Positions 14,035 through 54,505 of a stretch of DNA of 64,000 nucleotides are shown in pieces. This DNA comes from Deltaproteobacteria bacterium (GTDB lineage Bacteria > UBA10199 > JACPAL01), in assembly GCA_016180845.1 (NCBI GenBank), contig JACPAK010000003.1, forward strand, positions 124,001 through 188,000. Reading direction: 5' to 3'. The position numbers and the translations under genes were made by a program. Each line of letters starts with the position of its first letter. The first letter of the stretch is position 1. The notes under the pieces were generated by a model. The model was not told the DNA's origin and searched no databases. It saw only the letters and a program-made list of their open reading frames with translations.

Positions 14035-14931
14035 GTGAGCAATAGCCCATCAACATCTCTTGCCGCTCTCTTTGTCGTCGCTGCCGTTGCCGCCTTCCGG
14101 CGTTATTTCCTGGACCATCTTCAAGGCGACCGATCAGGAACTGGCCCAACCCCCCTCACCGATGACCAGGCATCTAGGCTGAGAGATCAATTTACCCAAA
14201 CGAGTCGACCAACCGGCGAACCGACCCAGCTTAAAATGACCGACCGATTCGAAGACGATTTTGCAGAATTTGTTCGCAGCAGGGGGAGGGACATTAGAGG
14301 CCTGACCCCTACGGACCATCTTCAACTGCTTGTCGACTATGACGAAACGCATCCCCTTGGCGAAAGACTACTCGCAGAGGTAACCCCCCTCCTCGGCACC
14401 GGGATTTGTTTCAATCTGAGTGAGTTTCATTTCACCATAAAAGACGAACGTCATACCGCTTACACTCGATATGGGAGAGATATCGGCAAAAAATATGTCG
14501 AGATCATAAAAAGTTCACTCCCTAACTGCTGGACAGAAACTCAAATCCTGCAGGTCATGGACGACCTGCACCATATCGGCGGAAGTGAGGCAAAAGAGAC
14601 GTTCAAGGAGGTTGTCGCCAATCACTGGAGCGATTCACCGCAGTTTGCCGAAAAATTCCTGCGACTCGAATCAACCTTTACACATGATCCAGCGTTGAAT
14701 AATGAGATGCGCGGCGCGATCCTGAATCTGATCCCGGAAGGTCAGGAACCACCCGAAGATCCCTACCGAGACCCGATCCACAGTCTTGTTCTCTCTGCGA
14801 TCTCACGTGTCTTCATGTACCCGACGACGGATCCAAACCTGAAATCCCCTGAGCAGTTCCTCGACATCCTGGTCCGGGAGAGGCCGAAATACCACCCCCT
14901 TTTCTGTCGGTTTAACGGGACCTGTCATTAG
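14035..14931 (+). CDS. Membrane-anchored protein of unknown function
   Basis: A 298-residue protein starting at GTG 14035 with one hydrophobic N-terminal segment ([13 protein letters not shown], about residues 9-21), then a helical domain. Its C-terminal half resembles the two lipoproteins at 20665 and 22147: [14 protein letters not shown] against RWPNTPEFATKFMKAV, then a helix ending in a [15 protein letters not shown] segment that aligns with EEKRAFIEKSLEAKP. This suggests a small paralogous family in this locus. It is divergent from hemB and convergent with the protease operon, overlapping its last gene by four bases. Function unknown. Confidence 0.65.
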
Positions 14932-15377
14932 GGTTTGATGAAAGTAACCGTTGTTTTACCCCGCCAATTTTTGGGTACGCGGTCATAATAATGCGTGCGC
15001 AAAATTACAGATAGCCCGTTTTCGGTCTTCCCTGAAACCGTTTGATACTGAGATGGAGTCGGACCTTTGACATCCTTTTTCTCCGTTGCCATAAAATGAA
15101 CTCCCTTGCTCATCAAAAGCCGTTTGACCGTTTCAAAACTGGAAGTTGTCGTACAAACACTTGCCTCAGACAGTGAGGATTTTTTAGAAGAAAAAGATTC
15201 TCGCTTCCCGATTAAATGAAACCCTTCCATCGTCTCACGACTCAGATTTGCATCATATCTCGCCCCCGAGCCAAAATACTGTCTGCAACGTGCGGCTCCA
15301 CCCTCTTCCTTTGCAGAGAGTCTCAAGTGTCCAAGAATGGATGCAAATAAAAAAATAGTTATGAAAATCCCCCTCAT
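14928..15377 (-). CDS. Small secreted protein, last gene of the protease operon
   Basis: A 149-residue exported protein. The ATG at 15377 is chosen because it is preceded by AGGGGG and gives a clean signal peptide (MRGIFITIFLFASILG); a frame-consistent start at 15401 overlaps the upstream gene and spoils the signal. The mature part is basic, with two Cys and a C-terminal strand-rich end ([10 protein letters not shown]). Nothing in it is recognised. It directly follows the 936-residue putative metalloprotease (stop to start eight bases), so it is probably co-transcribed and could be a partner or chaperone of the protease. Confidence 0.65.
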   Translation of the reverse strand: MRGIFITIFLFASILGHLRLSAKEEGGAARCRQYFGSGARYDANLSRETMEGFHLIGKRESFSSKKSSLSEASVCTTTSSFETVKRLLMSKGVHFMATEKKDVKGPTPSQYQTVSGKTENGLSVILRTHYYDRVPKNWRGKTTVTFIKP

Positions 15378-15385
15378 TTTTCCCC

Positions 15386-18196
15386 CTAACGTCCGGTGCA
15401 ATTATCGTCTATATAATTGTCGAACCCTTCATTTCCCTGACCATAAAAGGAAATACACCCAAAACTACAAACCGCCGGAACCAACCATTCCTGATAGGCG
15501 AACCTATCGGAACCCAGGTATTGTATCTGAAAATAGCCGGGGATCTCCAAGTCGGGTAATCGGCAACAATCCCAAACTTCTGAACCATCCATAGGCCACC
15601 CACAGTATCCACGGAATCCACCGTCCTCACATGCCCGATTGAGTCCAACAGGATTGCAATTGGAATTGGATACCGACCCACAACATTCAGCCGGACCTAC
15701 AAAGGGATAGCATCCGTCCCACTCGTACCCCAGAAGCAATTCGTCGTAAGGAGTTTCTCCACCCGGACATCCAGCGCTTCCGCCCCCACCCCCTGATGCG
15801 GTTTCAACTTCCTCCTCTTCCGGTTCCGGCCTCTCCGACCGTTCCCAACCACATCCTCCCCTCCTCTCACACAGGTCATGACACCAGTCAGGCAAGACAG
15901 AGCCTCTATCACGCCATCGTTGACAGGATTCAGAGCAGTAAACGGCATCAACGTCAGAGCTTGTACAACGCTCAGTACAGAAACCCTGTTCGCCATGATC
16001 CCGCACACAAATTTCACCGCAGTATGAATGACCAGGGCGATCAAAACATAAGTCGGTACAGTAACTCTCCGAAGGATAGTAGGTCTCGCACGTTCCCCCA
16101 CAATACTCCCGACCCCTATCCCCCCGGCAGCGTGTGTTGCAGATCGACATCGAAGGGAAATCGTTGCAATAAGCGGCACAATAACCCTGACCGCCCGTAG
16201 ACTCACAGATCGGTCGACAAAATTCTGGAATCACCCCTGCCCCAGACGCCGATTCCTCCTGACAAAGACCATCACAAAAACTGGCACCTGGGTTTGTGGC
16301 ACATTCGGTCAATCGTCTCTCTCTTAACGCCGCCTCACAATTCAGATCGAGGTTTGAGAGGGAGCAGTTGTTGTCCAGATCATTGACCCGAAGTGGCTCG
16401 CAGAGCTCGAAGCTACGGTTCCAGCAGTATTGGTAGCATTCGGCAGGGATCACCGTCTCACCGGCCGTTCCTGTATGGATCTGATTGTAATAAAAATCGG
16501 TGATACAGGCACGTAGTTGTTCCTCATCACCGGACCAGGCGTCGGAGTTTGCCTCGCCCCCGATATTGTCGGGATCGTCCCAATTATAATCCTCCGGAGG
16601 CGCCTCTGCCGCGTCACCGGTCGTCCCGACCGGGCCACCGGTATCGGGACTCACCGCGAAGTTATGCGCGACGTGGGGGTGGACCGTCGCAGCCCTCGCG
16701 CTTAGCCCATTGTCGCCCGCCGCATAGGGGGACACCCCAGATAATCCAAAAGGACCTCCCATCATATAGAGATCATCTTCGAGGGTCTGGAGTGTGATAC
16801 CAAGCCTGCTCAGTGACTGTGTAAACGTTTGTGCTACGCAATCCACACAGGTATCACCAGTTGGGCTAGAACTACAGACAGGGCATTCAGCATAAAACTC
16901 CTCCTGTTGGACAATTGAAAGACTATCAAAAAAGAACTGAAAGAGATAATTCTCATACATACTTAAGCGCGCCAGCGAGGCGCTTCCATTTTGGAGATAT
17001 TGAAAAATTAATTCGCCTCGACTATGAGTTCTTCCAAATTGGCCACTCCTTTCTATGAATAGAAGCAAATCGGATTGTTGACGATCGGTTAAGAAGTGTT
17101 GAGCAATGGCCCCAATCAATTGTGCTGTTGCCTCGTTTTCATAGTTGATCACCGGATATCTTGAAAGCCTATTGTATCTAATAGGAATGGCATCGAAAAA
17201 AACAGGATTGTTGTACATCCCATTAACCCAATGATAGAGGATATGTCCCATCTCATGAGCACCATCAATCATCACGAAACCTCGTGAGAGTGTCTCACGG
17301 TCTGTGATCCTTAAATCCTGATTGAATTCGATCATATTAAGTGAATTAACCTGAGCGCCAGTGCAAAGAACACCTGCGGGAAGACCACGACAGGATGGAA
17401 CAGACCACCTTGGAAAGAAGTGATTTCCAGGATTGACCGTCGGGGGAGAGAGGAGATCGCAAAGCGGACCCCAACCACCGGGGCAAGTGGTCGTCTCGGT
17501 CGGATCGACGATAAAGGCGAAAAAAGAAACGGCATCGAGTGTGTCTTCCACGTACATCCGAAATTCAGAACCTGGCTCCCCCACCTGCCGTACATCCCCC
17601 ACCTCGATCGCCTCACTGATCCGATTCGCGAGCTCCTGGAAATAGGCACTAAAATCGGATCGTCGTGCCTCATCCCACTGGTCTGCCGTCGGTGAATCAT
17701 CCGTAACAGCGAATGCGGATGGGATCAGAAACTCGATCGGATCGGGCAGATCCAATTGACCGTACGTCCCATCCCCCTCTTCATCAAACATCTGTCTCCA
17801 ATTTCCACACCCCCCCGTCGGACCACCGGTCTGTATCTTTACCTCGTTCCATACCTCAGGTGAATAAACCTCCTTCGGATGCCTCATATGACAGCGCTTG
17901 TAGGTTATTTCCCCATCGACAACAGGCTCCTCTTCACAACAGAGATCGAGTGCCGACTTTCCCCAAAAGTTCGGCCCGCAGATGACACGGTGACACTCCC
18001 CACTCAGGACCGGATCGCTTATGTTCCGTGATCGTACCTCTTCGGTGTGGCAGCGTTCATTGGATTCTGAGACCAACCCGAGGCCTTCAGCAACCCGGCT
18101 CACCGCATCGCGCATATCGCCCATCGACGGGAGTGAATAGGCAGGAGCTGAAAGACCCAGCATCAACAGAACAAAAATGAGAGAAGCCTTCCTCAT
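15386..18196 (-). CDS. Large secreted Cys-rich protein with HExxH zinc-protease motif
   Basis: A 936-residue secreted protein. A signal peptide (residues 1-21, cleaved after APAYS) precedes a region with a zincin-type motif HEMGH (H314, E315, H318), inside a helix flanked by hydrophobic residues. About 35 residues on, ENEATAQLIG has acidic residues (E353, E355) that could be the third zinc ligand, as in gluzincins. The C-terminal third (about 600-936) is very Cys-rich, with short repeats of the form C-x3-C-x6-YC spaced like disulfide-rich modules. No family is recognised beyond these motifs. It is one base downstream of a homologous gene and shares its sigma-54 promoter. Proteolysis is inferred, not shown. 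Confidence 0.8.
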   Translation of the reverse strand: MRKASLIFVLLMLGLSAPAYSLPSMGDMRDAVSRVAEGLGLVSESNERCHTEEVRSRNISDPVLSGECHRVICGPNFWGKSALDLCCEEEPVVDGEITYKRCHMRHPKEVYSPEVWNEVKIQTGGPTGGCGNWRQMFDEEGDGTYGQLDLPDPIEFLIPSAFAVTDDSPTADQWDEARRSDFSAYFQELANRISEAIEVGDVRQVGEPGSEFRMYVEDTLDAVSFFAFIVDPTETTTCPGGWGPLCDLLSPPTVNPGNHFFPRWSVPSCRGLPAGVLCTGAQVNSLNMIEFNQDLRITDRETLSRGFVMIDGAHEMGHILYHWVNGMYNNPVFFDAIPIRYNRLSRYPVINYENEATAQLIGAIAQHFLTDRQQSDLLLFIERSGQFGRTHSRGELIFQYLQNGSASLARLSMYENYLFQFFFDSLSIVQQEEFYAECPVCSSSPTGDTCVDCVAQTFTQSLSRLGITLQTLEDDLYMMGGPFGLSGVSPYAAGDNGLSARAATVHPHVAHNFAVSPDTGGPVGTTGDAAEAPPEDYNWDDPDNIGGEANSDAWSGDEEQLRACITDFYYNQIHTGTAGETVIPAECYQYCWNRSFELCEPLRVNDLDNNCSLSNLDLNCEAALRERRLTECATNPGASFCDGLCQEESASGAGVIPEFCRPICESTGGQGYCAAYCNDFPSMSICNTRCRGDRGREYCGGTCETYYPSESYCTDLCFDRPGHSYCGEICVRDHGEQGFCTERCTSSDVDAVYCSESCQRWRDRGSVLPDWCHDLCERRGGCGWERSERPEPEEEEVETASGGGGGSAGCPGGETPYDELLLGYEWDGCYPFVGPAECCGSVSNSNCNPVGLNRACEDGGFRGYCGWPMDGSEVWDCCRLPDLEIPGYFQIQYLGSDRFAYQEWLVPAVCSFGCISFYGQGNEGFDNYIDDNCTGR

Positions 18197-18197
18197 C

Positions 18198-20462
18198 TTA
18201 TCTCCTCATCCCTCCTCGCCCCGCTGGATCTTGCGGCATTCTCTGCGGGACTGCCGGATTAACAATCGGTGCAGAACGGCCGGGGGTCATCGCCGGTGGT
18301 ACGGGCTCTATCTCTCGCATCCTCTGCATGAGGTCAGACGGCGTTGTGTCGAGAGACCGGCTATCTCGGGAGGACTCCTGTGGCGTCACAAAGCCTCCAC
18401 CAGAACCAGCAAGCGGGAGCGCAAACTCCCTCTCGACACCATTCAGTGTCATCAGTCTTGGATGACCCAGTGTCGGCCCCAACGCATGCCATCCGGCGAG
18501 CATTCTCGCATAGGTCGGATTTTGCTCCACAGAGAGCGTGCGTGAGATATTGAACATATTCGCACAAAATGAGCCGAGATAGGTCTCGTTATAACCACGA
18601 CAAACATTGGGATACGAAAACCTCATCCCGGCCGTCATTGCCGTCACCTCACCACCTGTCTCTGTGACCGAACGGATAAACTCCTTCTTCTGCATCGCGA
18701 ATTCATTGGGGCAATAACCAAGTTCGCAAAGTTGGTCATAAACAAGTGCCTGCGTGATCACAGCGATCTCCTCTTCATCGATAGACTCCGGTGATAGCGG
18801 CCAGTCATGCAGTCTGTTTCTGTCGAATTTCTCCAGATAATAGGCATGCACGAGCTGATGCGCGAGCAGTGAAACGATGACCGGGCTGTATCCATTGGAG
18901 GGGACCCTACCCCCGGTCCGAGACCTCAAATGCTCCTCAATGATCGGGAAATCCCTTGGACGTTCAATCAGATAACCTGATTTGCCGCCGCCCGATGAAC
19001 CGGACGTCGGTTCGACGACCTCAGTACTCTCTTCAACTATGATCTCATAACCGCGGTCAGTGCCATAAAGGGATTCGAAGAGACCACCGTCTGTTGAGGC
19101 GCCCATGATCCCATAAGAAGGACGACACGCATCGCCCGTTTCCTTGGGCCCAATGTTATAGAAAGGATGGGAGCCCATTGCCCTCTTGCTCTGACAGTCT
19201 CCACAAATCTCATGACTGAGACAGATCCTCTCCTCTTCCGGCTGAAATTCAATGAGAGACCCCTCGGCCGTCTGACAACATTTCATCTGAACAACATTCC
19301 CTTGAAACGCCTCCGCCCAAAAGCGGAGCTGGCTGCACCCCTGACCCGCTGCGCAATCCCCCGGGATCCGATCGAGCATCGTTCCCAGGATATTCCAGAT
19401 CGTCACGACGATCTCCCTTGTCTCCTTTTGGTTTGTATCCAGTGAGGCGTTATGAAGATCACCCAAGGCGCCACTCGCAATCTTTTCGGCTAATCCATTT
19501 CGCGCGAGGGCGAGCAAGGTCTTGTAGTGATCCTTACGCTCATCCTCCATCGTGTAGGGAGTTGGTGCGGAAGGGAGTCCTTGATGAAAGAGGGGGCTCT
19601 TGTAGCCGTTTTGCCCCGCAATCACGCCACAGGTAAAACCCCATTTGAGGTGCTGTTTGCTGTGGGGAATATCGAGGGAGGGATGGCCCGGATTGCGGGC
19701 CCCATATTCATGGTTTCTATCGGCAGACTCAACCCTCATGCCGAAACCTATGCCTGGAGATGCAGAGGCACTAGGGCTGTCATAGTCATGTAGCCATGAG
19801 GAGCAAGTGATCGGCTGCATCAGATAACGACTGAAGAGAAAGCCATGGTTATCATCGATAAAGTTTCTTCCTTGCCACCCCTCATGCCCCGATTCTCTCG
19901 GAGGAGTCGGATCTGAGGTAGAGACGACCGGGTTCTCCTGGTAAATGGTGTCATCCCATACCTTCTTCGCCCCCCACTGATGGCAGTTCGTCGCATGCGT
20001 CGGAACACCAACAACATAACAGGTATCGCTCGCGAGGATTTCACCACAGACCCCCTCCGACTGACAGCGATCGTTGATCAGGTAAAATTGATAGGTCCCC
20101 TCGTTCGAACCATTGCGATTATTCGGGTTTGCATCACCCAGAGGAAGTCCGGTCAATTGTTTGTACGCAATCGCCTCATCAGTCCCGCTACAAAAATAGG
20201 CGTCTGACGTACCGTTACCGATCCCATAGTTCAACGCCGGTCCGTTCGGGGGACCGATCGGCTTGATCTCAAATTGAAGACCCGGACGCTGGTTGTATCT
20301 CGTCGATGCCGGGCTTGGCGAATCGACGGTTGTCTCCCGCATTCTCTGCTGCATCCCTCGTGACGGGTTTGAAATGACAGGTGGTGGGGCAGAGGCATCA
20401 CGCTCCGGGATCAAGAAACCAGAGAAGAGGACCAACAGAAGGATTGGAAGTCGTCTCAACAT
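18198..20462 (-). CDS. Secreted Cys-containing protein, putative pseudoprotease homologue
   Basis: A 754-residue protein with a signal peptide (MLRRLPILLLVLFSGFL) and Pro-rich ends that share a QRMRE motif. At about residue 534 it has HQLVH in the sequence context LLAHQLVHAYYL, with DEEEIAVITQALV about 35-40 residues later. This matches the zinc site of the next gene (HEMGH, then ENEATAQ), but the catalytic Glu is replaced by Gln. It may therefore bind zinc without cleaving, or be inactive. SD AGAAGG is seen before the ATG, and a strong -24/-12 promoter lies at 20482-20497. It is the first gene of the operon 20462 to 14928. Export is well supported; function unknown. Confidence 0.75.
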   Translation of the reverse strand: MLRRLPILLLVLFSGFLIPERDASAPPPVISNPSRGMQQRMRETTVDSPSPASTRYNQRPGLQFEIKPIGPPNGPALNYGIGNGTSDAYFCSGTDEAIAYKQLTGLPLGDANPNNRNGSNEGTYQFYLINDRCQSEGVCGEILASDTCYVVGVPTHATNCHQWGAKKVWDDTIYQENPVVSTSDPTPPRESGHEGWQGRNFIDDNHGFLFSRYLMQPITCSSWLHDYDSPSASASPGIGFGMRVESADRNHEYGARNPGHPSLDIPHSKQHLKWGFTCGVIAGQNGYKSPLFHQGLPSAPTPYTMEDERKDHYKTLLALARNGLAEKIASGALGDLHNASLDTNQKETREIVVTIWNILGTMLDRIPGDCAAGQGCSQLRFWAEAFQGNVVQMKCCQTAEGSLIEFQPEEERICLSHEICGDCQSKRAMGSHPFYNIGPKETGDACRPSYGIMGASTDGGLFESLYGTDRGYEIIVEESTEVVEPTSGSSGGGKSGYLIERPRDFPIIEEHLRSRTGGRVPSNGYSPVIVSLLAHQLVHAYYLEKFDRNRLHDWPLSPESIDEEEIAVITQALVYDQLCELGYCPNEFAMQKKEFIRSVTETGGEVTAMTAGMRFSYPNVCRGYNETYLGSFCANMFNISRTLSVEQNPTYARMLAGWHALGPTLGHPRLMTLNGVEREFALPLAGSGGGFVTPQESSRDSRSLDTTPSDLMQRMREIEPVPPAMTPGRSAPIVNPAVPQRMPQDPAGRGGMRR

Positions 20463-20664: not shown

Positions 20665-22104
20665 ATGGGGGTCTGGCTCCGAACCGTTCCTTTTTTGGCA
20701 CTCGTCGGTTGTGCTGCACACACCTTCTCGCGAACGAGAGATCAAAAGCCTGTTCCTCCTAATCCACCAAGAACACCTGACCCGAAAGAAACAATTAACC
20801 ACTTAAAACAGCTCCTCCAGACCGATACGACGGCGGGACTCAATCTCCTCCTCTCTGAAGTTCAAAAATTCCCCCGCCCAACACTCCCAGGCGATCTGAT
20901 GACATTGATTGATGAACATCAGGGAGACCTCGTTTTGTTCAGTATCACACAGGACCCTGATCATCTCCAAAACGTGAAGCCCCGGCTCCGACTCATTCTA
21001 CTGACACGAAAGGCGATGATTGATTACATGACCACGGCTGAAGCGGAAGCGCTCGAAATTGTGCCGCCGGAGGTCCGTAAAGAAATTGAGAGATCGAGGG
21101 TTTTCCTCTCCGAATATTTTGTCACAAACGATCCTCAACTCCTCGAGCGGATGTCCCCATCGGTCAAAGAGGCGATTATCTATGGCGATCTGATCATGAA
21201 TTATGCCGTGATGGACAATTCTCCCCCTTATGACACGCTCCCTCCTGCCTTGAGGCAGGTGATCGAAGAAAATCGTCAGTCTCTCCTCACCTACATCATG
21301 CTGGCCGACAAGATCCCCTTTCCGCCAGACTTTCTGCTCAATCTTTCGCTCCGCATCATGCATCTTTACTCACCTCAGCAACGAAATGATCTCCTCGAAT
21401 CGTCGGCAAGACATTACCGACATCAACATCAATGTTTCCGCATGGACGATCATCCCGTTCTCCAAACAAGATCTCTTCTCCCTTTTCTCCCTGTTTTTCT
21501 GATTGCAGGACTCCAAGGGGGCGGCTGTTCCAGCGAGAATATTGAATCGATACTGACGGACTACACCTTTCGCCGGAGTCGGATCGATGGTCACTTGGTC
21601 AATGAAATTGCAAAAAGCAGGGACCGGTGGCCCAACACGCCGGAGTTTGCCACTAAATTCATGAAGGCGGTAAAACTCTCAAAAGACCACACACGGGAGG
21701 TCGAGGAGACTGTTCGTTACCTGTTTGAATCAATACCCGATCAGGTCGTCGCCGAAAGGTCTGCGATCCCGATTGGATTTTATGCCTCGGCCCATGCCTT
21801 TGTTTGGCTCCTCAACTTGGTCCCTCTGGAAGAGAAGCGGGCGTTCATCGAAAAAAGTCTCGAGGCGAAACCAAACTTCGCACTGGCACTGTATGAATCG
21901 GCAAGGCGAACGATCGAAAATCTCCCTGATGCGGATCGTAAGGCACTCGAACAGGTGCGCGAGAGGCTCCTCGAACATGACCGCACCACAGAACCAAAAG
22001 GCTCACGCACCAAGCATGCCGAGATGATTCGGGAACTGGATGATGCGGTCCAGAGGGCTCTGGAACCACTTGAACCGCTTATGTATCCTCCAAGAAAACA
22101 ATGA
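20665..22104 (+). CDS. Lipoprotein of unknown function, paralogue of the 22147 gene
   Basis: A 479-residue lipoprotein; the lipobox is LVGC with Cys at residue 16, followed by a Pro-rich linker (KPVPPNPPRTPDP). The rest is predicted largely helical, with repeated LLxx/EE patterns. It shares with the next gene the blocks SARHYRHQHQCF / AARHWGQRKECF and GLQGGGCS / GLEGGGCS (a pair of Cys that may bond), and a C-terminal EEKRAFIEKSLEAKP region. It is transcribed divergently from the secreted protease operon, with a hairpin masking its ribosome site. No known domain recognised; outer- or inner-membrane anchoring depends on residues after Cys (Ala-Ala suggests the outer membrane). Confidence 0.78.
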   Translation: MGVWLRTVPFLALVGCAAHTFSRTRDQKPVPPNPPRTPDPKETINHLKQLLQTDTTAGLNLLLSEVQKFPRPTLPGDLMTLIDEHQGDLVLFSITQDPDHLQNVKPRLRLILLTRKAMIDYMTTAEAEALEIVPPEVRKEIERSRVFLSEYFVTNDPQLLERMSPSVKEAIIYGDLIMNYAVMDNSPPYDTLPPALRQVIEENRQSLLTYIMLADKIPFPPDFLLNLSLRIMHLYSPQQRNDLLESSARHYRHQHQCFRMDDHPVLQTRSLLPFLPVFLIAGLQGGGCSSENIESILTDYTFRRSRIDGHLVNEIAKSRDRWPNTPEFATKFMKAVKLSKDHTREVEETVRYLFESIPDQVVAERSAIPIGFYASAHAFVWLLNLVPLEEKRAFIEKSLEAKPNFALALYESARRTIENLPDADRKALEQVRERLLEHDRTTEPKGSRTKHAEMIRELDDAVQRALEPLEPLMYPPRKQ

Positions 22105-22146: not shown

Positions 22147-23349
22147 ATGAATATAAACTGGATTCGTGCAGCATTACCGCTCCTGTTGGCATCGACCGGT
22201 TGTGCCCTCAATCAATGGGCACAAAAATCTGACGAAAAAAGGCCAACCCCGCCTCCAAAAGGAAAAGATCTCATTAATCAGGAGACGATTCTCCAAGAAG
22301 TTGCACCACGTCTCTCCGAACCGCAAAAAGCCCTCGTTGCTGCAACGATGCATGAGCTCTCCCAGACAGCCTGTCAATCTGGGAATAGGCCTGATTGCCT
22401 GACAAGCGAGGAAGGTCTCCAGAATTGGAATCGACTGATCCGTGAGGTCCCGGAGGCCGGCATTCCACTCTTTTTAGCGAGACTTGCAAGACCGCAAAAT
22501 GGCGAAAAAGAATCTCTTCAGGCAGTTCTCTTGCATAACCACGAAGAGATCTACCAATATGCGATCCTCTACGACAGGATCCCCCTCTCCGCACATGCTT
22601 TTTTTGACAGCGCCATGGCGATCTCTAATTTCTATAAGGATAGTGAAAAGGACAAATCCCTCTTTATCTCTGCCGCAAGACATTGGGGCCAGAGAAAGGA
22701 ATGCTTCACAACATATGACATGGGTGAAGTCGCCATGATGATTGGCAGTCGTCGATACATCGCCTATTTTGTCAGTCAGGGGCTTGAAGGGGGTGGTTGC
22801 TCGCCCACAGAGACGATCGCTATCCTTTCAAATTATGACTTTAGTGGCAAACCCCATGAATACAATCTTCTCACTGCAGCAATTAAAAACCGTGATCAGT
22901 GGCCCGATTCAGCGACGTTCCGGGTAAATATCATGAGGGGCGTTCTTTATGCGGGTATTTATACTTCGGAGGCCCGTGCCGGCGTCACTAAAATCCTGGA
23001 TGATTCGGGAGAGAATCTCGACTCCCTGGACCCCCAACAAGTCGGATTCGAGGTCTCAACTGGCCTCTTTGCCTTTGCCTGGCTCTTTGGGAGCCTTCCC
23101 GAGGAGGAGAAAAAAACATTCCTTGAATCAATGATCACACAAAAGCCGCTCTTCGGTCTCGCCTTTCTGGAAATGGCCAAACCATTTTTGGGAACCTTGT
23201 CCGCCCCTGTTCAAGAGAGATTCGAGGCCGATAAAAACAGGCTCGAGACAACGGACACCGATGGCAAACGAGTCGCCATCAGATCCGTGGCTACTCGTTT
23301 CGTCAGAGATATGCAAAACCTGCGACAGCTTCTGCAGAGGGGTCCGTAA
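22147..23349 (+). CDS. Lipoprotein of unknown function, paralogue of the 20665 gene
   Basis: A 400-residue lipoprotein with lipobox STGC (Cys at residue 19), then a short Pro-rich tether and a helical domain. It is collinear with the preceding lipoprotein through GLEGGGCSPTETIAILSNYDF and the C-terminal block LPEEEKKTFLESMITQKP. It also shares RDQWPDSATF with the 14035 protein. The 42-base gap and same strand suggest one transcript. Cys residues in KECF and GGGCS are conserved across the pair. Its clustering with secreted proteases suggests a shared surface complex, but that is inference. Confidence 0.78.
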   Translation: MNINWIRAALPLLLASTGCALNQWAQKSDEKRPTPPPKGKDLINQETILQEVAPRLSEPQKALVAATMHELSQTACQSGNRPDCLTSEEGLQNWNRLIREVPEAGIPLFLARLARPQNGEKESLQAVLLHNHEEIYQYAILYDRIPLSAHAFFDSAMAISNFYKDSEKDKSLFISAARHWGQRKECFTTYDMGEVAMMIGSRRYIAYFVSQGLEGGGCSPTETIAILSNYDFSGKPHEYNLLTAAIKNRDQWPDSATFRVNIMRGVLYAGIYTSEARAGVTKILDDSGENLDSLDPQQVGFEVSTGLFAFAWLFGSLPEEEKKTFLESMITQKPLFGLAFLEMAKPFLGTLSAPVQERFEADKNRLETTDTDGKRVAIRSVATRFVRDMQNLRQLLQRGP

Positions 23350-52360: not shown

Positions 52361-54505
52361 ATGAAACAAACTATTCTCCTTTTGCTTGTTCTCTTAATAT
52401 CAGGCCCTGATCTAGTGGCTCAGGAGTCGAGTTTTGAAATGACCCTGGATCCCGTCGCGGGAATCCTCTGTCACAGAGAAACTTCAGGAGAAAATACCTG
52501 CACTCAATGTACTGCTGATGGTCTTTGTAAAGGAGCTTTTGGAGTTACTTCATTCAGTTATCAGTTTTTGGCCGGAAACTTTTCGGAATTCACTGTTATC
52601 AATAATATGGGCGTCGTTTATCGATTTGATATCTCTTTCGATGCCACTGACAACTTTTATGTCTTTGTCATCAACGGTCTCAACTTTGCGTATTTTCTCT
52701 TTGATTCCAGTCTGGGACTCTACGTCATCGATCCTGCCCGAATTTGTCGGGAATGTCTTATCAGCATATCTGTTTGCGGCAATGGAATCGTCGAGGGGGA
52801 GGAGCAATGCGATGACGGCAACTCAGTCTCTGGAGACGGCTGCGAATATGGCTGTACCCTCGCTCCACGATGTACCGACCCTGATCTTTTAGAACCCGAC
52901 GGCGGGGTTTTAGTACAGACCACGGTGGTCGGATTTGACGAGCAGGAGAGATGGAGCCACCTGAACGACACTTGCACCAGTGCGGAAATTCTTTCTGAGG
53001 CGCACTGCGAGGGGGGAGACAACTCGTTTGTCACGTCATCTGATATTTCTTGCAGCTACTTCAATACGGCAACCACAATCTACAAATGTTCTGCCGGTGC
53101 GTGTGTGCCGGACGGTGATGATGCTGATAACGACGGGATCCTGGATAGTTCGGATAACTGTCGTCTGTTGGCCAACCCGGATCAAATGGATGCCGACGGT
53201 AACGGGATTGGCGATGCCTGCTGGGTAACTTTCTTGGCCCAAGAGGAAATTGATAGTGGCCCACCGGATACGCATGGGGCGGTCGGCCCTCGTCACATCG
53301 TCTCTCTCTCCAATTCGTTTGGTGATGTTGAGGGATTCTTCCTAGTCCAAGATAAGGAGGGGAATATTATCACACCGGTGATCACCCAGACCAGATTTTG
53401 GAACGAGGGGCTCGGCCTGAGTCGAGAAGGTTATGTAGATTCCAGGATCTTTTTTGATGAACTGAGTCAACGCTGGATCGCCCTGGGGATGCCGGATGTT
53501 CATGGCATTGCCCTTGCGGTGAGTGAGACGGATGACCCGACAGGAAACTGGTACTTCAGGTATTACACGGATGTAGGGGGCACTGATTTTCCCCGCCTTG
53601 GGTTTAACAGGAATTGGATCGTTGTCGTCATTGGAGGTCCAACCCTCCTCGTCTTTAACAAGGGTGAGGTACTCAACAACATCTGGCCAGACTCACCCCT
53701 CACCCTGTCGGGTCTTGATTGCGGTAGTCATACACATCCAGTCATGACCTATGACCCTGAGGAACCGGATCTCTATTTAGTGGCTAGTTGTAACAGTTAT
53801 TATGGGCCAACACCCCGACTTCGCGTTCAAAAGCTATCCGGTCCCGTTGACAGTCCGACCGTAAGCCCCTTGGAGACCCCATCGGGGGGCGAAGGATTTT
53901 TTGAAATCGGGGCAAGGTTGAGTTTTGATCGCACTGAAACGGGGGCGACTCAACGTGATTCAGCGACACGGATTAGTACCATCGAATCTAATATTGCGAC
54001 ATCCCCCGTCCTGCGCAACGGGCGTATCTGGGCCACCCTGCGAAGTGTCATGCCGCTCAGCGGGCCGATCGAGCGGACCACCGTCTCCTGGTTCGAGATC
54101 GATCCCAACTCAAGCCCGGCGGTCCTCGTCCAGGAGGGACTCATCGAAACACCGGGGATGTACTACTACTTCCCCTCGATCGCCGTCGATGCGGATAACA
54201 ATGTGGCGATCGGCTTCAGTGGTTCCGGTGTCGATAACTATCCAGGGGCCTATTATGCCATCCATAGGAATACCGATCCCGCCGGTATCGTAAGCACACT
54301 CTCCGTCTATAAAGAGGGAGAAATGCCTTACCGAGATTTGTCTGTGGGAAACGCCCCTTGGGGGGACTATAGTGCGACGGTCCCGGACCCTGTTGAACCG
54401 AATGTCTTTTGGACTATCCAGGAATACAGCGCCGCAGTGCCAATATGGGACGGAACAATGAGAGGCCGGTGGCACACGCAGTGGCTTAAATTTATGAGCC
54501 CGTGA
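52361..54505 (+). CDS. Secreted protein with DUF4215 and thrombospondin type 3 repeats
   Basis: A 714-residue exported protein. Signal peptide residues 1-20 (cleaved after LVAQ). Residues about 135-180 contain a DUF4215 (Myxococcus Cys-rich) repeat: CGNGIVEGEEQCDDGNSVSGDGCEYGC (read in parts). Residues about 250-287 are a Ca-binding thrombospondin type 3 repeat (DGDDADNDGILDSSDNC, DADGNGIGDAC). The C-terminal about 430 residues read as a beta-propeller-like region (blocks of DPTGNWYFRYYT, NPSSP..). Probably surface-located, Ca-stabilised. Preceded by a sigma-54 promoter. Confidence 0.85.
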   Translation: MKQTILLLLVLLISGPDLVAQESSFEMTLDPVAGILCHRETSGENTCTQCTADGLCKGAFGVTSFSYQFLAGNFSEFTVINNMGVVYRFDISFDATDNFYVFVINGLNFAYFLFDSSLGLYVIDPARICRECLISISVCGNGIVEGEEQCDDGNSVSGDGCEYGCTLAPRCTDPDLLEPDGGVLVQTTVVGFDEQERWSHLNDTCTSAEILSEAHCEGGDNSFVTSSDISCSYFNTATTIYKCSAGACVPDGDDADNDGILDSSDNCRLLANPDQMDADGNGIGDACWVTFLAQEEIDSGPPDTHGAVGPRHIVSLSNSFGDVEGFFLVQDKEGNIITPVITQTRFWNEGLGLSREGYVDSRIFFDELSQRWIALGMPDVHGIALAVSETDDPTGNWYFRYYTDVGGTDFPRLGFNRNWIVVVIGGPTLLVFNKGEVLNNIWPDSPLTLSGLDCGSHTHPVMTYDPEEPDLYLVASCNSYYGPTPRLRVQKLSGPVDSPTVSPLETPSGGEGFFEIGARLSFDRTETGATQRDSATRISTIESNIATSPVLRNGRIWATLRSVMPLSGPIERTTVSWFEIDPNSSPAVLVQEGLIETPGMYYYFPSIAVDADNNVAIGFSGSGVDNYPGAYYAIHRNTDPAGIVSTLSVYKEGEMPYRDLSVGNAPWGDYSATVPDPVEPNVFWTIQEYSAAVPIWDGTMRGRWHTQWLKFMSP

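What the first reader, a model, noticed from the sequence alone, without database searches (positions are those of the whole stretch)
15386..20462. Secreted zinc-protease-like pair with one member missing the catalytic Glu
Adjacent genes share a zincin-like site: HEMGH with a later E-rich helix in one, HQLVH with a matching DEEEIAV helix in the other. This protease/pseudoprotease pairing in one operon is unusual; the pseudoprotease might be an inhibitor or a scaffold.
Basis: partly seen in the sequence, partly recalled or inferred. Interest (0 to 1): 0.55.

Follow-up and report, generated by a model that had tools for sequence, protein, structure and literature searches.

The report
Secreted protease with dead-twin partner operon
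A little-known bacterium carries four copies of a small operon that pairs a secreted zinc-protease-like protein with a similar-looking partner whose active site keeps the presumed metal-binding residues but lacks the cutting residue, plus a third small secreted protein, and the set keeps recurring as a unit.

Summary
Protein A (15386-18196, HEMGH plus ENEATA) and protein B (18198-20462, HQLVH plus DEEEIAV) are adjacent, 1 bp apart, on the minus strand. The B-then-A pair occurs at seven loci in two genera of one family, each time followed by a third small gene, C (one copy looks broken). All 8 A proteins have HExxH. Six of 7 B proteins have HQxxH with a Glu pair 27-29 residues on; the seventh has lost more of the site. 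So the missing catalytic Glu is a fixed trait of the B lineage. Profile comparison aligns the two sites to each other (0 of 200 shuffled profiles score as high). The predicted A domain resembles zincins weakly (Z up to 5.5). The B model failed (pLDDT 41), so B's fold rests on sequence alone. Best reading: A is a secreted zincin, B its non-catalytic partner in a complex, C an accessory or inhibitor. The principle is known (M16B pairs, mitochondrial processing peptidase, NTNH with its neurotoxin). The core family has no Pfam or NCBIfam model and, apart from one marginal tail match, was found in no other genome searched.

The parts
18198..20462 (-). B: secreted pseudo-zincin, 754 aa, first gene of the unit
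   Evidence: ORF; six homologues, each directly upstream of an A gene; no Pfam or NCBIfam family for this protein
18846..18860 (-). B residues 535-539 HQLVH: catalytic Glu replaced by Gln
   Evidence: HQxxH in 6 of 7 B proteins, GExxH in one
18768..18776 (-). B residues 563-565 EEE: candidate third metal ligand, 28-30 residues after the first His
   Evidence: Two adjacent Glu kept in 6 of 7; QSG in the seventh; aligned by hhalign to ENEATA of A
18723..19556 (-). B residues 303-580: stretch proposed to be the pseudo-zincin domain (two long helices, insert, motif helix, Glu helix)
   Evidence: Collinear hhalign segments; helix order in a low-confidence model
15386..18196 (-). A: secreted zincin-like putative protease, 936 aa (55 Cys in the whole protein), with a Cys-rich C-terminal part
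   Evidence: ORF; seven homologues; Cys count; no Pfam or NCBIfam family
17084..17701 (-). A residues 166-371: zincin-like catalytic domain
   Evidence: AlphaFold2 model; VIA-align matches to zinc peptidases
17243..17257 (-). A residues 314-318 HEMGH: presumed zinc-binding and catalytic motif
   Evidence: HExxH in 8 of 8 A proteins
17123..17140 (-). A residues 353-358 ENEATA: candidate third zinc ligand Glu355
   Evidence: An [ND]E pair starts 26-52 residues after the first His in 8 of 8 A proteins
14928..15377 (-). C: small secreted protein (149 aa from ATG 15377; the ORF opens at TTG 15401), third gene of the unit
   Evidence: Homologue follows A at 7 of 7 pair loci, and the C profile matches nothing else in 46 genomes of the class at E <= 0.001; the copy at G001:C11 matches only in part and looks broken

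Best explanation
The locus is a three-gene operon, B-A-C, for secreted proteins. A is a zincin-type zinc protease (His, His and Glu ligands, catalytic Glu in HExxH). B descends from the same kind of domain and in most copies kept the presumed ligand set (HQxxH plus Glu) but has Gln for the general-base Glu, so it can bind metal or substrate but not cut. The two are translated together, exported and assemble outside the cytoplasm into an A-B complex in which B folds, masks, targets or presents substrate to A. C is a small accessory factor, perhaps an inhibitor or release factor. Shown: gene order, motifs, recurrence, correlated evolution, purifying selection. Supported but not proven: common zincin ancestry of A and B. 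Inferred: zinc binding, export, complex formation, activity and the role of C.
For: Seven B-A pairs in the two held genomes of the family, B always first. B-A gaps of -19 to +2 bp with the starts I used (+2 is C7, whose start I set just inside the reading frame; its ATG pair gives -1 or -4); A-C gaps of -20 to +19 bp at 6 of 7 loci. A: HExxH 8 of 8; B: HQxxH 6 of 7. Spacing from the first His to the acidic pair in B (28 in five, 27 in one) equals that in A of C7 and C10 (28). hhalign: motif to motif, 0 of 200 shuffles; the second alternative alignment is collinear, first long helix of both. The A profile ranks the 7 B proteins 1, 2, 4, 6, 7, 8, 11 among 89 single proteins, 4 of the 7 alignments motif to motif; the B profile ranks the 8 A proteins 1, 4, 5, 6, 10, 15, 35, 75 among 90. 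Distance matrices of A and B correlate (r 0.92, 8 of 5040 permutations; r 0.68, p 0.03 without the closest orthologue). The four best-conserved 40-residue windows of B, of 595, start at 532-535, over the motif; dN/dS is 0.18 for B and 0.27 for A between the two genera. A model: the top four VIA rows are zinc peptidases, 1eb6 Z 5.5 (3.6 A, 133 aligned), 1g12 Z 5.4, 2x3a Z 5.3, 1ge6 Z 4.9; by its title 2x3a is itself a Glu-to-Gln inactive mutant. Glu-to-Gln at this position abolished activity in two other MA-clan enzymes, one result unpublished (PMC1925091, passages).
Against: B's model has pLDDT 41 and its VIA rows hold no zincin. hhalign probability is only 10-20%. The collinear second segment is weak: score 19.8, reached by 1 of 100 shuffles in the half-profile test, and best scores above 20 were seen in at least 15 of 200 whole-profile shuffles. 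For A, Foldseek showed no zincin in the 50 rows listed of 151 (best E 0.48, a rhodopsin) and Z 5.5 can be a common arrangement by the tool's own note. In the single-protein test only 2 of the 6 B-profile-to-A alignments shown fall motif on motif, and unrelated proteins rank 2nd and 3rd. One A (C10) has no B beside it. Interaction, activity and zinc binding are untested.
Confidence: 0.55

Rival explanations
1. B is an inhibitor or zymogen partner that keeps A silent until outside the cell or until B is removed, and C helps fold or release A.
For: B is encoded first and overlaps or abuts A; an inactive look-alike can occupy a partner's working surface. NTNH shields its co-expressed neurotoxin in a complex (PMC11322297, abstract start in the listing).
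Against: B is more conserved than A in 21 of 21 pairwise comparisons (whole proteins, so A's variable Cys-rich part counts) and keeps its pseudo-site best, more than a plain plug needs.
Confidence: 0.2
2. B is unrelated to zincins; HQxxH with a nearby Glu pair is a structural helix motif in a new fold and the likeness to HExxH is convergent or chance.
For: B model poor and without zincin rows; hhalign probability low; one B lacks the motif yet is otherwise intact.
Against: Shuffled-profile control, equal ligand spacing and the ranking test; weakly, the collinear second segment.
Confidence: 0.2
3. B is itself a metal-dependent enzyme with altered chemistry or specificity (Gln instead of Glu), not a pseudoenzyme.
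For: The presumed ligands are kept with near-constant spacing in 6 of 7, and the site is the best-conserved part of B.
Against: Gln is a poor proton acceptor and the same change abolished activity in other MA-clan enzymes (PMC1925091, passages); the seventh B also lost the first His and the Glu pair.
Confidence: 0.05

Closest known systems
Bacterial M16B heterosubunit peptidases (Sph2681/Sph2682, PttP1/PttP2) and mitochondrial processing peptidase alpha/beta
   Same: Active zinc subunit plus a homologous subunit lacking the zinc site, from a two-gene operon in prokaryotes, working as a heterodimer (PMC11266112 and PMC8960859, passages).
   Different: M16 uses HxxEH and (recalled) another fold; its inactive subunit lacks ligands, whereas most B proteins keep His, His and Glu and lost the base. 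Pfam found no M16 or other family in A or B cores.
NTNH and its clostridial neurotoxin
   Same: Partner co-expressed with a zinc protease, interlocked heterodimer (PMC11322297 and PMC4671068, abstract starts in the listing); common ancestry only from the title of a cited reference.
   Different: No receptor or translocation domain was recognised by Pfam in A or B; gene order of that system is recalled, not checked.
ACE and ACE3 of mammals
   Different: Mammalian M2 family, intact and expressed only in some species; no paired function was reported in the passages seen.
M35 deuterolysin-type zinc peptidases (1eb6, 1g12, 2x3a; family label recalled)
   Same: Best structural rows for the A domain, Z 5.3-5.5.
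   Different: A lacks the GTxDxxYG third-ligand motif of M35 (motif recalled; absent in 8 of 8) and has an [ND]E pair instead.
Substituted HExxH zincins in general, such as ADAM proteins with HQxxH
   Same: Glu most often replaced by Gln; a decoy or accessory role is suggested (PMC3650047, passages).
   Different: Those are animal proteins or scattered substitutions; here the loss is lineage-wide and tied to an adjacent partner with an intact motif.

Membership tests
Zincins / peptidase clan MA (for A) | HExxH motif on a helix | tested here: met
   8 of 8; the window A motif lies in helix 261-280 of the model
Zincins / peptidase clan MA (for A) | Third zinc ligand downstream, Glu in gluzincins | tested here: inconclusive
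   [ND]E pair starting 26-52 residues downstream in 8 of 8, in helix 304-323 of the model for the window A; geometry not measured
Zincins / peptidase clan MA (for A) | Zincin fold | tested here: inconclusive
   VIA Z up to 5.5 to zinc peptidases; Foldseek showed none in its 50 listed rows
Peptidase family M35 (for A) | Asp third ligand in GTxDxxYG | tested here: not met
   Absent in 8 of 8 A proteins; motif recalled
Zincin pseudoenzyme (for B) | Zincin fold | tested here: inconclusive
   B model pLDDT 41, no zincin in rows; profile similarity to A only
Zincin pseudoenzyme (for B) | Catalytic Glu absent or site unusable | tested here: met
   Gln in 6 of 7; in the seventh Glu stands there but the first His is Gly and the Glu pair is lost
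M16-type protease/pseudoprotease heterodimer | HxxEH motif and M16 sequence family | tested here: not met
   A has HExxH at the aligned site; Pfam found no M16 match in 8 A or 7 B proteins
M16-type protease/pseudoprotease heterodimer | Physical heterodimer required for activity | not testable with these tools
   Needs protein work

The most novel reading that the evidence does not exclude
A new, lineage-specific, multicopy secreted three-part system: a zincin protease that works only in complex with a metal-binding, catalytically dead twin, controlled by a third small secreted protein. It would be the HExxH-clan counterpart of the M16 active/inactive pairs, used by this family on external targets, with the dead subunit as the conserved core and the protease as the faster-evolving part.
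Probability: 0.3. Interest if true: 0.65.

Novelty: new variant of a known kind. Interest (0 to 1): 0.5.

Why it matters
It is hard to show for a single pseudoprotease that loss of catalysis is selected and not decay. Here the same dead/active pairing was kept as a unit at seven loci, with the dead member under stronger constraint than the protease. That makes the question 'what is a pseudoprotease for' directly testable in a two- or three-protein bacterial system.

Tried and rejected
Pfam gave no family for the cores of A, B or C, nor NCBIfam for the window's A, B and C; two B copies carry added DUF4215 or DUF11 repeats. Sub-threshold names (calcium channel IQ; MPTase-PolyVal in one A, E 0.53) were set aside. 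PDB sequence searches with A, B and C gave nothing meaningful. Searches for B in genome contigs (twice), viral contigs and plasmids found no relative; these collections may leave out the window's own genome. The B profile found 2 of 385 genomes. The A profile found 3 of 385, the third, G173, marginal (E 2.9e-4) and outside the zincin part. Both wide scans scored at most two candidates per genome. A single-sequence scan of 99 genomes found the same two genomes for each protein. Foldseek on A's model gave rhodopsin-type noise in its listed rows; no separate Foldseek listing was run for B; VIA on B gave lyase and coiled-coil noise. Wholesale filing of A with deuterolysin, thermolysin or M48 peptidases was rejected: Z of 3 to 5.5 is not enough. 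That A and B might be homologous in their N-terminal parts (some alignments) was not pursued. The p-values treat related proteins as independent, and I did not match the comparison proteins for length or Cys content, so they overstate certainty. Literature: five searches, of which I saw listings and then passages of five papers; apart from NTNH, ACE/ACE3 and ADAM cases I saw no such pair in the HExxH clan. The library lacks most subscription journals.

Full report
What is there. On the minus strand of the window, gene B (18198-20462, 754 aa) is followed after 1 bp by gene A (15386-18196, 936 aa) and, 8 bp on if counted from ATG 15377, by gene C (14928-15377, 149 aa). All three start with a hydrophobic stretch like a signal peptide (by eye). 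B has HQLVH at 535-539 and DEEEIAV with Glu at 563-565. A has HEMGH at 314-318 and ENEATA with Glu at 355.

It is a repeated unit. The window lies in G000, a genome of 2.13 Mb. Homologous B-A pairs lie at four places in G000 (C3 = window, C4, C6, C7) and three in G001, the only other member of its family in the genomes searched (C11, C17, C4); one A without a B is at G000:C10. B always precedes A, with gaps of -19 to +2 bp for the starts I used; the +2 is C7, where I set the start just inside the frame and its two ATG codons give -1 or -4. All-against-all comparison showed that C has homologues downstream of A elsewhere. A profile of C finds seven copies, each next to a pair, and nothing else in 46 genomes of the class; the copy at G001:C11 matches only in part, 248 bp after A, and looks broken. 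At the other six loci the A-C gap is -20 to +19 bp for the starts I used (the C6 start is not a start codon; its ATG is 9 bp further in). Outside these two genomes B was found in 0 of the other 383 genomes and 0 of the other 44 of the class, and the A zincin part in 0 of the other 44. A wider A scan gave one marginal tail match in the other 383.

The missing glutamate is a fixed trait. HExxH is kept in 8 of 8 A proteins. In B, 6 of 7 have HQxxH followed by two adjacent Glu residues lying 27-29 residues after the first His. The seventh (G001:C4) has GEMVH and QSG there, so its site is further degraded while the gene stays open. In A of C7 and C10 the [ND]E pair starts 28 residues after the first His, the same spacing as in B; in the other six A proteins it starts at 26 to 52. 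Of 595 windows of 40 residues in B, the four best conserved start at 532-535, over the HQxxH site; the one starting at 530 ranks 13th. Between the window unit and its G001:C11 orthologue, B is 81% and A 64% identical; counted dN/dS is 0.18 for B and 0.27 for A, with dS 0.70 and 1.07, the latter near saturation. B is thus under purifying selection and more constrained than the protease.

Are A and B related? hhalign of the two profiles gives a best local alignment with HQLVH on HEMGH and the EEE helix on the ENEATA helix. Its probability is low (10-20%), but the score, 34.1, was reached by 0 of 200 column-shuffled profiles (best 26.9), and reversed profiles score 17.0 and 17.6. The next alternative alignment is collinear and puts the first long helix of B's region on the first helix of A's zincin domain. 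Alone it is weak: score 19.8, reached by 1 of 100 shuffles of the half profile, while best scores above 20 occurred in at least 15 of the 200 whole-profile shuffles. Against single proteins, drawn from 97 open frames, the A profile ranks all 7 B proteins in the top 11 of 89, with 4 of the 7 alignments motif to motif and one on the first helix. The B profile ranks 6 of 8 A proteins in the top 15 of 90, with 2 of those 6 alignments motif to motif; unrelated proteins rank 2nd and 3rd (the rank tests ignore relatedness). I take common zincin ancestry as likely, not proven.

Structure. A residues 45-560, with 8 sequences, gave pLDDT 63.9 overall and 84-94 over the first helices of the zincin part and the HExxH helix. 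Foldseek showed no zincin in 50 listed rows of 151 (best E 0.48). VIA-align's second look put zinc peptidases first: 1eb6 Z 5.5, 3.6 A over 133; 1g12 Z 5.4; 2x3a Z 5.3; 1ge6 Z 4.9; lower down M56-, M48-, M34- and thermolysin-type entries (family labels recalled) lie among unrelated helical proteins. This fits a zincin, but by the tool's own note such Z values can be a common arrangement. B residues 50-700, with 7 sequences, gave pLDDT 41 and no zincin in the VIA rows.

Correlated evolution. Pairwise distances of the seven A and seven B proteins correlate (r 0.92, exact permutation 8 of 5040; without G001:C11 r 0.68, p 0.03). The same cross-genus partners are closest in both, though by narrow margins except the first: window with G001:C11, C4 with G001:C17, C7 with G001:C4 (in B, C7 ties with C4 to two decimals). 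I infer that the pairs have been inherited as units since before the genera split. Some B members carry DUF4215 or DUF11 repeats (C6 and G001:C17).

How it most likely works. A and B are made from one message, exported, and assemble outside the cytoplasm. B, with a presumed metal site but no general base, cannot cut and probably serves as folding partner, scaffold or substrate-presenting subunit; A cuts. C may be an inhibitor or release factor. All of this paragraph is inference. Precedents for the principle are the bacterial M16B pairs and mitochondrial processing peptidase (PMC11266112, abstract and passages; PMC8960859, passages) and NTNH with its neurotoxin (PMC11322297, abstract start in the listing and passages; PMC4671068, abstract start in the listing). 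HQxxH inactive relatives are known: ACE3, which lies downstream of ACE in mammals, and ADAM proteins (PMC1925091 and PMC3650047, passages). No sequence search here linked A or B to any of these.

Verdict. It is a new variant of a known kind: an active/inactive protease pair, here in an unclassified HExxH family, with a fixed Glu-to-Gln change in most copies, a third gene and several copies per genome.

Noticed in passing
window 14928-15401 (-): Third gene of the unit, a small secreted protein of no known family, follows A at all seven pair loci (one copy looks broken).
   Followed up: yes
L023:7569-12125 (-), 1518 aa: B copy on G000:C6 carries an N-terminal extension with six DUF4215 repeat matches and a DUF11 match below Pfam's cut-off.
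   Followed up: partly
L025:8958-10265 (+), 435 aa: A copy on G000:C10 without B or C beside it; its C-terminal end is 55% identical over 119 residues to that of the A of C7, while its zincin part is 28-31% identical to other A proteins, as if recombined.
   Followed up: partly
window 20665-22104 and 22147-23349 (+): Two adjacent paralogous lipoprotein-like genes (by eye), 26% identical over 282 residues, no Pfam family, divergent from the unit.
   Followed up: no
window 14035-14931 (+) and L026:6992-7846 (-): A 298-aa gene of no known family lies beside the window unit; its orthologue (57% identical) lies one gene away from the G001:C11 unit, so local gene order is partly kept.
   Followed up: no
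window 52361-54505 (+): 714-aa protein with DUF4215 and thrombospondin type 3 repeats, 27% identical over 163 residues to the repeat part of B of C6.
   Followed up: no
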